Shown in pieces: positions 30,143-33,825 of a stretch of DNA of 64,000 bases (position 1 is the stretch's first letter; each line of letters begins with the position of its first letter). Origin of the DNA: Jiella avicenniae (lineage in GTDB: Bacteria > Pseudomonadota > Alphaproteobacteria > Rhizobiales > Rhizobiaceae). A program made the translations under genes and the position numbers. The notes beneath the pieces are model-generated. The model was not told the DNA's origin and made no database searches. It worked only from the letters and a program-made list of their open reading frames with translations. Where the stretch lies: assembly GCF_021390325.1 (NCBI RefSeq), contig NZ_JAJUWU010000008.1, positions 186,001 to 250,000 on the forward strand, read 5' to 3'.

Positions 30143-33064
30143 ATGGCCGAATTGAAGACGATTTCCATACGCGGCGCGCGCGAGCACAATCTGAAGGGCG
30201 TCGATCTCGATCTGCCGCGCGACAGGTTAATCGTGATGACCGGTCTGTCCGGCTCGGGCAAATCGTCGCTCGCCTTCGACACGATCTATGCCGAGGGCCA
30301 GCGCCGCTACGTCGAGAGCCTCTCGGCCTATGCCCGGCAGTTCCTCGAGATGATGCAGAAGCCGGACGTCGACCAGATCGACGGCCTGTCGCCGGCGATC
30401 TCGATCGAGCAGAAGACCACTTCGAAGAACCCGCGCTCGACGGTCGGGACCGTCACCGAGATCTACGACTATCTGCGGCTGCTCTTCGCCCGCGTCGGCG
30501 TGCCCTATTCGCCGGCGACCGGGCTCCCGATCGAGAGCCAGACGGTCAGCCAGATGGTCGACCGGGTGCTGGCGCTGGAGGAAGGAACGCGGCTCTATCT
30601 CCTCGCCCCGATGATCCGCGGCCGCAAGGGCGAGTACAGGAAGGAACTCGCCGAGCTGCAGCGCAAGGGCTTCCAGCGCGTCAAGATCGACGGCGAGTAT
30701 CACGAGATCGCCGACGCCCCGGCGCTCGACAAGAAGTACAAGCACGACATCGACGTGGTGGTCGACCGCATCGTCGTGCGCGAGGACATGAAGGCGCGCC
30801 TCGCCGATTCCATCGAGACGGCGCTGGGGCTCGCCGATGGCTTGGCGGTGGCCGAATTCGCCGACAAGCCCCTGCCCAAGGAGCGGCTCGCGGATGCGGG
30901 CGCCAATCGCAGCAAGAACGAGACCCACGAGCGTCTCCTGTTTTCCGAAAAGTTCGCCTGCCCCGTATCCGGCTTCACCATTTCCGAGATCGAGCCGCGC
31001 CTCTTCTCCTTCAACAATCCCTTCGGCGCCTGCCCCACCTGCGACGGCCTCGGCTCGCAGCAGGCGGTCGATCCGAAGCTCATCGTCCCGAACGACGCCC
31101 TGACGCTGAAAGCCGGCGCCATCGCGCCCTGGGCGAAATCGACCTCGCCCTATTACGGCCAGACCCTCGACGGGCTCGGCAGGGTCTACGGCTTCAAGCA
31201 GACCGACCGCTGGGTCGAACTTTCGGACGCGGCGAAGACCGCCATTCTCTACGGCACGGGGCGCGACAAGATCGAGTTTCGCTACAAGGACGGGATCCGC
31301 TCCTACACCACGACCAAGACCTTCGAGGGCGTCGTCAACAATCTCGCCCGCCGCTGGAAGGAGACCGACTCCGCCTTCATGCGCGAGGAGATCGAGCGCT
31401 TCATGTCGGCGACGCCCTGCCCCGCCTGCAGCGGCTACCGACTGAAGCCCGAGGCGCTGGCGGTGAAGATCGCCGGCCGGCACATCGGCGAGGTCACGCA
31501 GCTGTCGATCCGCGATGCGGCCGGCTGGTTCGAGGCGCTGCCCGCCGCGATGAACGACAAGCAGAACGAGATCGCCGTCCGCATCCTCAAGGAGATCCGC
31601 GAGCGGCTGAATTTTCTCAACGACGTCGGCCTCGACTATCTGACCCTGTCGCGCGCCTCGGGCACCCTGTCCGGCGGGGAAAGCCAGCGCATCCGCCTCG
31701 CCTCGCAGATCGGTTCCGGCCTCACCGGCGTGCTCTACGTGCTCGACGAGCCGTCGATCGGCCTCCACCAGCGCGACAACGCCCGCCTGCTCGACACGCT
31801 GAAGCATCTGCGCGACATCGGCAACACCGTCATCGTCGTCGAACACGACGAGGACGCGATCCTTGCCGCCGACTACGTGGTCGACATCGGCCCGGCCGCC
31901 GGCATCCATGGCGGCGAGGTCATCGCCTCGGGCACACCCGGCGAGATCATGGCCCATCCGAAGTCGCTGACCGGCCGGTATCTCTCGGGCGATCTCGGCG
32001 TGCCGGTGCCGGAGAAGCGCCGCAAGGCGCCGAAGGGCAAGCGCCTGAAGGTCGTCGGCGCACGCGGCAACAATCTGAAGAACGTCACGGCCGAACTGCC
32101 GCTCGGGGTGTTTTCCTGCGTCACCGGCGTGTCGGGCGGCGGCAAGTCGACCTTCCTGATCGAGACCCTGTTCAAGGCCGCCTCGCGCCGTATCGCCAAC
32201 GGTCGCGACATCCCGGCCGAGCACGACCGGATCGAAGGGCTGGAACTGCTCGACAAGGTGATCGACATCGACCAGTCGCCGATCGGCCGCACGCCGCGCT
32301 CGAACCCCGCCACCTATACCGGCGCCTTCACCCCGATCCGCGACTGGTTCGCGGCGCTGCCCGAAGCCAAGGCGCGCGGCTACCAGCCCGGCCGCTTCTC
32401 CTTCAACGTCAAGGGCGGGCGCTGCGAGGCCTGCCAGGGCGACGGCGTCATCAAGATCGAGATGCACTTTCTGCCCGACGTCTACGTCACCTGCGACGTC
32501 TGCAAGGGCAAGCGGTACAATCGCGAGACGTTGGAGGTCACCTTCAAGGAAAAGTCGATCGCCGACGTCCTCGACATGACGGTGGAGGAAGGCGTGAACT
32601 TCTTCGCCGCCGTCCCCGCCGTGCGCGACAAGCTGGTGACGCTGAACGAGGTCGGGCTCGGCTACATCAAGATCGGCCAGCAGGCGACGACGCTGTCCGG
32701 CGGCGAGGCCCAGCGCGTGAAGCTCGCCAAGGAGCTGTCGCGCAAGGCCACCGGCAAGACCCTCTACATTCTCGACGAGCCGACGACGGGCCTGCATTTC
32801 CACGACGTCGCGAAACTCCTCGAAGTGCTGCACGACCTCGTCGACCGCGGCAATTCGGTGGTGGTGATCGAGCACAATCTCGAGGTGATCAAGACTGCCG
32901 ACTGGCTGATCGACATCGGCCCTGAAGGCGGCGACGGCGGCGGCGAGATCGTCGCGACCGGCACGCCGGAGGACGTCATCACGGTCGAGCGGTCCTATAC
33001 GGGACAGTTCTTGAAGGAGCTTCTGGAGCGGCGGCCGCGGGTGAAGAAGGAGGCCGCGGAGTAG
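30143..33064 (+). CDS. uvrA: Excinuclease ABC subunit A
   Basis: Damage-recognition ATPase of nucleotide excision repair, 973 aa. Two ABC modules are present: Walker [10 protein letters not shown] at about 33-41 and GVSGGGKST in the second half. Both signatures ([13 protein letters not shown] and [13 protein letters not shown]) are intact. Zinc-binding Cys pairs occur at CPTCDGLG and CPACSGYR, and at CEACQGDG with CDVCKG. The start at 30143 gives the family N-terminus ([20 protein letters not shown]). A SOS box upstream indicates LexA control. Confidence 0.97.
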
Positions 33065-33103
33065 GGTTCGCGAGCTCCAAGGCCGTTGCGCAGGCATTCT
33101 CGG

Positions 33104-33490
33104 TTACCAAAGCCGTGTAATGCCAAACTGATCGAAGGCCTGGTCGACCGTGATCAATGCCAGTTCTTCGATCTTCGCCTGAGCGGCAAGTAGACGATCG
33201 AACGGGTCCTTGTGGGTTCCGAGCATCTGGCCAGCCATGAGCGCATGGGAATGGGTGACGTGCAGTTTGGAGAAGCGGCCTTGCCTAATGAAATCATCGA
33301 ACGTTTCGATGATCTCCCGCGCGACCTCCAGTTTACCAATTCTGACTTTATTCGCGAGTTCGAAGGCCGTGACCGCGCTCACGTAGCGATCCGTTTCGAT
33401 GTCCTCGATCGTCGATTTGGCCGCATCGCTGAGATGCGGATCGGCGGTGAGCCACTAGAGAAATGCGTGAGTATCGAGAAGTACTCTCAC
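33104..33490 (-). pseudogene. VapC-like PIN-domain toxin interrupted by an amber codon
   Basis: The GTG at 33490 overlaps the antitoxin stop by four bases and reads VRVLLDTHAFL, then TAG (33457-33455), then WLTADPHLSDAAKS. It continues without further stops to 33104, for 128 codons in all. PIN toxins of this group carry LLDTHAxLWWL, so TGG has become TAG at codon 12. The first catalytic Asp (LLDTH) is upstream of the stop, while VTAFELANK and AKIEELALITVDQ lie downstream. An internal GTG at 33382 could give only a 92-residue protein lacking the first Asp. The toxin is therefore probably inactive unless the stop is suppressed or is a sequencing error. Confidence 0.82.
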
Positions 33491-33759
33491 TCGCCATTAT
33501 CGCCGAGAAACGAGTATTTGCCTTCCCAAGCCGCCAAGTCGTCCTCGGACATCGGCTGGAGAAAGAGGTCGGACGGGATCTTGTCGCGCAAATGGGCAAG
33601 GGCACCATATCCGCGAACCTTGGGCTTGTCGGGGTCCACCCGCACCAGCTTCGCCACCGGCTCGTCGCCCCGCGCGATGACGATTTCTTCGCCCGCTTCC
33701 ACCCGGTCCAGAAGCTCCGCAAGGCCGGTTTCCGCCTTCTGTATGGTGACGACAGCCAT
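33487..33759 (-). CDS. Phd/YefM-type antitoxin
   Basis: Type II antitoxin of the prevent-host-death family, 90 aa. The N-terminal DNA-binding module is MAVVTIQKAETGLAELLDRV followed by AGEEIVIARGDEPVAKLV. The C-terminal acidic region (SEDDLAAWEGKY) would bind the toxin. AAGGAG lies six bases before the ATG. Its stop overlaps the GTG of the mutated PIN gene, the usual coupled arrangement. It remains intact although its toxin carries a stop codon, and probably autoregulates the pair. Confidence 0.88.
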   Translation of the reverse strand: MAVVTIQKAETGLAELLDRVEAGEEIVIARGDEPVAKLVRVDPDKPKVRGYGALAHLRDKIPSDLFLQPMSEDDLAAWEGKYSFLGDNGE

Positions 33760-33825
33760 CCTCTTCTCCTTCGGCACGTCATCAATGTAGCGAGCGCCTT
33801 CGCCAACCACAATCGGGAGACGATC

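What the first reader, a model, noticed from the sequence alone, without database searches (positions are those of the whole stretch)
33104..33759. Antitoxin kept intact beside a PIN toxin with an in-frame amber codon
The PIN frame starts at a GTG overlapping the antitoxin stop and has TAG at codon 12, exactly where LLDTHAxLWWL toxins have Trp. No other stop occurs in the remaining 116 codons, so the mutation looks recent. The antitoxin may persist for immunity to related toxins, or the stop may be suppressed.
Basis: seen in the sequence. Interest (0 to 1): 0.55.

Follow-up and report, generated by a model that had tools for sequence, protein, structure and literature searches.

The report
Chromosomal VapC toxin gene with stop
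A bacterial toxin gene beside a still-intact antitoxin gene is cut short by a stop at its twelfth codon, most likely ordinary decay of a toxin-antitoxin pair; a related species has a different stop at the very same codon, a coincidence that is worth a wider count.

Summary
On the minus strand an intact Phd/YefM antitoxin (33759-33487) is followed, start overlapping stop, by a PIN (VapC) frame with TAG at codon 12 (33457-33455) and 116 open codons after it. Homologues put the start before the stop: Asp6 is present in 47 of 47 aligned loci. The uvrA-DUF72 interval is a variable TA site: 7 of 10 genomes of the genus hold a phd-vapC-like pair, 3 of those 7 with a broken toxin. In Jiella pacifica the same codon is TGA; in two other relatives it is TGG. 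J. pacifica has also changed the conserved Glu44 and antitoxin-tail residues. No suppressor anticodon was seen in 43 detected tRNAs (an incomplete list), TAG is an ordinary stop here, T follows the stop, and no downstream RNA structure stands out. Best reading: separate, probably recent toxin knock-outs in decaying chromosomal VapBC modules, a known phenomenon. Unexplained: of six VapCs flagged with one internal stop in surveys, five have it at codon 12 (5 of 7 with G005; expected share about 0.11), a small post-hoc count.

The parts
33487..33759 (-). Phd/YefM-type antitoxin gene, 90 aa, ATG start, TGA stop, intact
   Evidence: (PF02604, 37.3 bits)
33104..33490 (-). VapC (PIN domain) toxin frame, 128 codons plus stop, GTG start overlapping the antitoxin stop; interrupted at codon 12
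   Evidence: (PF01850, 60.3 bits read through the stop)
33455..33457 (-). in-frame TAG at codon 12, aligned with a Trp codon in relatives
33107..33454 (-). 116 codons open after the stop, no further stop, no indel against three orthologues; E44, D95, D98 and D116 kept
30143..33064 (+). uvrA, left flank of the variable TA site; ends in TAG
   Evidence: NCBIfam UvrA, 1602.9 bits
33826..34635 (+). DUF72 protein gene, right flank of the variable TA site
   Evidence: PF01904, 203.8 bits

Best explanation
This is a chromosomal type II toxin-antitoxin module (Phd/YefM antitoxin with a VapC-type PIN toxin), probably acquired horizontally into the uvrA-DUF72 interval, whose toxin has been knocked out by a single nonsense codon at the conserved Trp12. 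Translation started at the GTG stops after 11 residues, so no PIN nuclease is made; the antitoxin gene is left intact. The orthologous toxin was most likely knocked out separately in Jiella pacifica by a different stop at the same codon, and a related pair in a third genome (G005) is broken further. Shown: the sequence, the stops, the intact orthologues, the site variation. Inferred: absence of toxin, separate origin of the stops, horizontal arrival, relaxed need for the module.
For: Intact orthologues at the same site in G007 (Aurantimonas sp. 22II-16-19i) and G001 (Jiella endophytica). TAG here against TGA in G004 (Jiella pacifica 40Bstr34): each is one step from TGG, two steps from each other. 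uvrA and the concatenated flanks put G004 with G005, G007 and G008 rather than with G000 (support 95 and 92). Neutral evolution of the frame on both the G000 and the G004 branch is rejected (lnL -1113.0 against -1093.3, on the one tree with these two as sisters; pairwise dN 0.079, dS 0.623), so an old shared dead gene is excluded. G004 also shows Asp at codon 44, where 45 of 47 aligned loci have Glu and the two with Asp are both G004's own, and antitoxin W78R and K81E. G005 has a stop at codon 3 and a frameshifted antitoxin. TA G+C is 57.6% against 67.6% for the window. TA decay by deletion and nonsense is described in PMC7167474 (passages read) and PMC7280312 (Discussion read).
Against: The TA gene tree itself mildly prefers G000 with G004 (bp-RELL 0.86; rivals not rejected, AU p about 0.10). 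Five of six VapCs flagged with one internal stop in the surveys (5 of 7 with G005) have it at codon 12, more than random nonsense predicts. The G000 frame keeps the conserved residues checked, which a functional leaky stop would also predict. No expression data.
Confidence: 0.8

Rival explanations
1. Leaky stop as attenuator: a stop at codon 12 is read through at low rate, so a little full-length VapC is made and the pair stays functional but mild; the identity of the stop drifts while the protein stays constrained.
For: Stops at the same codon in two species with low dN/dS after it (0.079/0.623) and no indel in 348 nt; codon 12 again in G657, G864 and G981; conserved acidic residues kept in G000.
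Against: No suppressor anticodon in 43 detected tRNAs, list incomplete; T follows the stop in 4 of 5 codon-12 cases, the base that aids termination (PMC6764699, passages); downstream RNA is no more folded than shuffles in G000 and G004 (z -0.04 and 0.10); G004 lost Glu44 and changed antitoxin-tail residues; G981 carries further stops and only an antitoxin remnant; of 20 loci fetched from G657's genus my script could read 7 PIN frames, G657's own with TGA and six with TGG.
Confidence: 0.09
2. Antitoxin selected as immunity (anti-addiction): the toxin is dispensable, but the antitoxin is kept because it neutralises related incoming toxins.
For: Antitoxin intact and constrained (omega about 0.03 on this branch); anti-addiction has been shown for another pair (PMC2654758, passages).
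Against: If the toxin stop is recent, the antitoxin has had no time to show separate constraint; nearest other antitoxin match in its own genome is weak (26.4 bits); in G004 conserved tail residues are changed; in G005 the antitoxin is frameshifted. No test of neutralisation exists.
Confidence: 0.2
3. Sequencing or assembly error at the codon.
For: Reads not available; one base decides it.
Against: A different stop at the same codon in a separately named and deposited genome and other VapCs with a flagged internal stop make a real nonsense allele unsurprising; no homopolymer at the site.
Confidence: 0.05
4. One ancestral stop inherited by both species and changed from one stop to another later, in a dead gene.
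For: TA gene tree mildly groups the two.
Against: Needs at least three changes at the codon against two; neutrality on both branches is rejected by about 20 lnL units.
Confidence: 0.03

Closest known systems
Chromosomal type II VapBC modules with Phd/YefM antitoxin and PIN toxin
   Same: Gene order, overlapping start and stop, PIN and Phd profiles, conserved acidic residues in the frame
   Different: Toxin frame carries a stop at codon 12
Decaying chromosomal TA systems such as ccdO157 of Escherichia coli and xre-res in Pseudomonads
   Same: Toxin broken in some lineages and intact in others (PMC7167474 and PMC2654758 passages, PMC7280312 Discussion; the original ccdO157 paper was not held)
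   Different: Different toxin family; here two relatives share the hit codon but not the stop
Programmed stop-codon readthrough genes
   Same: Open homologous frame after an in-frame stop
   Different: No supporting context, suppressor or structure found

Membership tests
VapBC type II toxin-antitoxin | PIN-domain toxin | tested here: met
   PF01850 60.3 bits over cut-off 23.6 when read through the stop; no NCBIfam hit; no PDB sequence match at E 0.001
VapBC type II toxin-antitoxin | Conserved acidic active-site residues | tested here: met
   D6, E44, D95, D98 and D116 present in the G000 frame; their catalytic role is recalled
VapBC type II toxin-antitoxin | Upstream antitoxin gene, overlapping or abutting | tested here: met
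   GTG overlaps antitoxin TGA by two bases; PF02604 37.3 bits
VapBC type II toxin-antitoxin | Intact, translatable toxin | tested here: not met
   TAG at codon 12; so a broken member, not a working pair, unless read through
VapBC type II toxin-antitoxin | RNase activity neutralised by the antitoxin | not testable with these tools
   no experiment
Decaying chromosomal TA module | Toxin lesions in some lineages, intact orthologues at the same site in others | tested here: met
   broken in G000, G004, G005; intact in G001, G002, G007, G008; no phd-vapC-like pair at the site in G003, G006, G009
Programmed readthrough or stop recoding | Suppressor tRNA or reassigned codon | tested here: inconclusive
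   43 tRNA matches, no CTA, TTA or TCA anticodon, but the list is incomplete (no Leu-TAA, Ile-GAT or Ala-TGC seen); uvrA ends in TAG
Programmed readthrough or stop recoding | Stimulating context or downstream structure | tested here: not met
   T after the stop; RNA fold z -0.04
Programmed readthrough or stop recoding | Protein made past the stop | not testable with these tools
   needs expression data

The most novel reading that the evidence does not exclude
Nonsense at the conserved Trp12 codon is a recurrent, selected state of VapC toxins in Alphaproteobacteria: early, slightly leaky stops (TAG or TGA) that tame the toxin while the antitoxin and the rest of the toxin frame are kept.
Probability: 0.08. 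Interest if true: 0.65.

Novelty: new member of a known kind. Interest (0 to 1): 0.28.

Why it matters
As a single case it is one more decaying chromosomal toxin-antitoxin pair, useful for studying toxin loss at a variable site. If the clustering of nonsense at codon 12 held in a large, unbiased count, it would point to a mutational hot spot or to selection for a particular way of silencing or attenuating VapC, testable with a simple reporter.

Tried and rejected
Downstream start: rejected, Asp6 lies before the stop in 47 of 47 aligned loci and the next in-frame GTG is not conserved. Suppressor tRNA: none seen in 43, but the list is incomplete. Stimulating RNA structure: none in G000 or G004. 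Antitoxin paralogue: only a weak N-terminal match. Viral contig pattern scans for TAG or TAA at codon 12 and at a second Trp, codon 43: 1 and 13 stretches matched; by eye none of the 14 shows a PIN frame. Control for codon 12: a genome pattern for TAG at Trp43 gave 1 match in 337 genomes, by eye not a PIN, against 3 of 337 for TAG at codon 12, all three already known; but the Trp43 pattern fits only 1 of 20 intact genes sampled from the class list against 12 of 20 for the codon-12 pattern, and neither fits any of 20 PINs sampled from the genus, so that control has no power. TGA at codon 12 was not scanned by pattern. Structure prediction was not run; it would not decide the question. Literature on nonsense or readthrough in VapC: searches (16 papers, 15 listed; 1 paper, not opened; 7 listed) were seen as listings only and no title treats nonsense at this codon; two searches returned no paper. 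Nothing wider is claimed.

Full report
Observation. The minus strand holds a Phd/YefM antitoxin (33759-33487, 90 aa) and, overlapping its stop by two bases, a PIN frame with TAG at codon 12 (33457-33455) and 116 codons open to a TAA at 33106-33104. Pfam: PIN 60.3 bits read through the stop, PhdYeFM_antitox 37.3 bits, both above cut-off; NCBIfam gave nothing for the toxin and a sub-threshold hit for the antitoxin. In the same genome 20 PIN matches were found and only this one has an internal stop.

The site. The module lies between uvrA and a DUF72 gene. In the 10 genomes held for the genus, 7 carry a phd-vapC-like pair in this interval: G000 (window), G001, G002, G004, G005, G007, G008; in G003 and G009 the interval is 78 and 17 bp between the matched ends, and G006 has 1358 bp of other content without a PIN or antitoxin match there. 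The module has 57.6% G+C against 67.6% for the window, which fits horizontal arrival (inference).

The codon in relatives. The aligned codon is TAG in G000, TGA in G004, TGG in G007 and G001; the 348 nt after it align without indels in these four. G005, with a related pair, has a stop at codon 3 and a frameshifted antitoxin. So 3 of 7 toxins at the site are broken. Of 127 PIN matches in the genus only those of G000 and G004 are flagged with an internal stop; G005's stop lies before its match.

Selection. After the stop, G000 and G004 differ with dN 0.079 and dS 0.623 (NG86). A branch codon model, run on the tree with G000 and G004 as sisters only, rejects neutrality on both branches together (lnL -1113.02 against -1093.27 with both free), but not on G000 alone (-1095.12 against -1094.94), and on G004 alone only weakly (-1096.51 against -1093.80). 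Parsimony counts of private site changes are 7 N and 13 S for G000, 12 and 12 for G004, 11 and 21 for intact G007. So a dead gene shared since the common ancestor is excluded, and recent separate stops fit; for G000 alone the age of the stop is open. G004 also has Asp at codon 44, where 45 of 47 aligned loci have Glu and the two with Asp are both G004's own (the 47 loci include repeats of the same gene), and antitoxin W78R and K81E, signs of further decay. G000 keeps D6, E44, D95, D98 and D116.

History. uvrA and the concatenated flanks place G004 with G005, G007 and G008, not with G000 (support 95 and 92); in the DUF72 tree G004 joins G005 (63) and G007 joins G008 (99). The TA genes mildly prefer G000 with G004 (bp-RELL 0.86, AU p about 0.10 for the rivals), so gene exchange at the site is possible. 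TAG and TGA are each one step from TGG and two from each other, so two separate hits need fewer changes than one inherited stop. For a gene like those of G007 or G001, two random nonsense hits fall in the same codon with probability 0.046-0.126.

Suppression. ARAGORN on the loci of the 43 tRNA matches shows no anticodon for a stop; Leu-TAA, Ile-GAT and Ala-TGC were not seen either, so the list is incomplete. prfA is present. uvrA beside it ends in TAG, and the orthologous toxins of G004, G007 and G001 end in TAG. The base after the stop is T, which aids termination (PMC6764699, passages read; PMC5373646, passages, notes that the fourth base matters). The 104 nt from the stop on fold no better than shuffles in G000 (z -0.04) and G004 (z 0.10); the intact G007 has z -2.22.

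Recurrence at codon 12. Surveys that flag internal stops gave: 2 of 150 listed matches in 394 family genomes (G000, G004, list cut); 2 of 75 in 397 order genomes (G000, G657); 4 of 100 in 385 class genomes (G000, G864, G1069, G981). The genome sets overlap. Distinct genes with a flagged stop: six. Codon 12 in five (G000 TAG, G004 TGA, G657 TGA, G864 TAG, G981 TAG) and codon 19 in G1069. G005 (codon 3) was not flagged; with it the count is 5 of 7. The mean share of codon 12 among one-step nonsense opportunities is 0.106 (range 0.088-0.133) in the 20 genes that could be scored of 40 fetched. Without the index gene, 4 of 5 has P 0.0006 (0.0045 if the share were 0.18), and 4 of 6 with G005 has P 0.0016 (0.012); without G000 and G004, 3 of 4 has P 0.004 (0.02), and 3 of 5 with G005 has P 0.01 (0.044). 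Limits: the count is post hoc and small, the search tool's handling of stops in mid-gene was not verified (its description says that stops are read through), frameshifts and deletions are not counted, and the Trp43 control had no power. G981 also has later stops and only an antitoxin remnant; G657 has an intact Phd/YefM antitoxin (35.2 bits) and G864 an open 92-codon frame that looks like one by eye. Of 20 loci fetched from G657's genus my script could read 7 PIN frames: G657's own with TGA and six with TGG. Two ordinary readings remain for the excess: a Trp codon offers two transitions to a stop, and early stops leave no toxin fragment that could occupy the antitoxin (inference, untested).

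Known background. Decay of chromosomal TA systems by deletion and nonsense is in print (PMC7167474, passages), with defective toxins up to about 50% for xre-res in Pseudomonads and 30% for ccdO157 in E. coli (PMC7280312, Discussion read); anti-addiction is described in PMC2654758 (passages). The original ccdO157 paper was not held.

Verdict. A real, ordinary lesion: an inactivated VapC in a decaying chromosomal pair, with an intriguing same-codon hit in a relative. The antitoxin's persistence needs no special role if the stop is recent. The leaky-stop reading is not excluded but lacks direct evidence.

Noticed in passing
window 33065-33825: The uvrA-DUF72 interval is a variable toxin-antitoxin site in the genus: seven of ten genomes hold a phd-vapC-like pair of differing similarity, two hold nothing and one other content.
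   Followed up: yes
L013:1144-1899: G005 has a related pair with toxin stop at codon 3 and a frameshifted antitoxin.
   Followed up: partly
L145:613-873: G613 has a VapC-like frame that joins the DTH motif directly to the Glu44 segment, as after an in-frame deletion of about codons 9-43.
   Followed up: partly
L143, L144: Two VapCs, G600 and G663, whose two halves match in different pieces, apparently split by frameshifts in mid-gene.
   Followed up: no
G000:C44:68007-68375 and G000:C49:126497-126865: Two PIN genes with identical score and frame length in the window's genome, perhaps a duplicated segment.
   Followed up: no
G000 tRNA set: Leu-TAA, Ile-GAT and Ala-TGC tRNAs were not found among the 43 matches, probably assembly gaps or search loss.
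   Followed up: no
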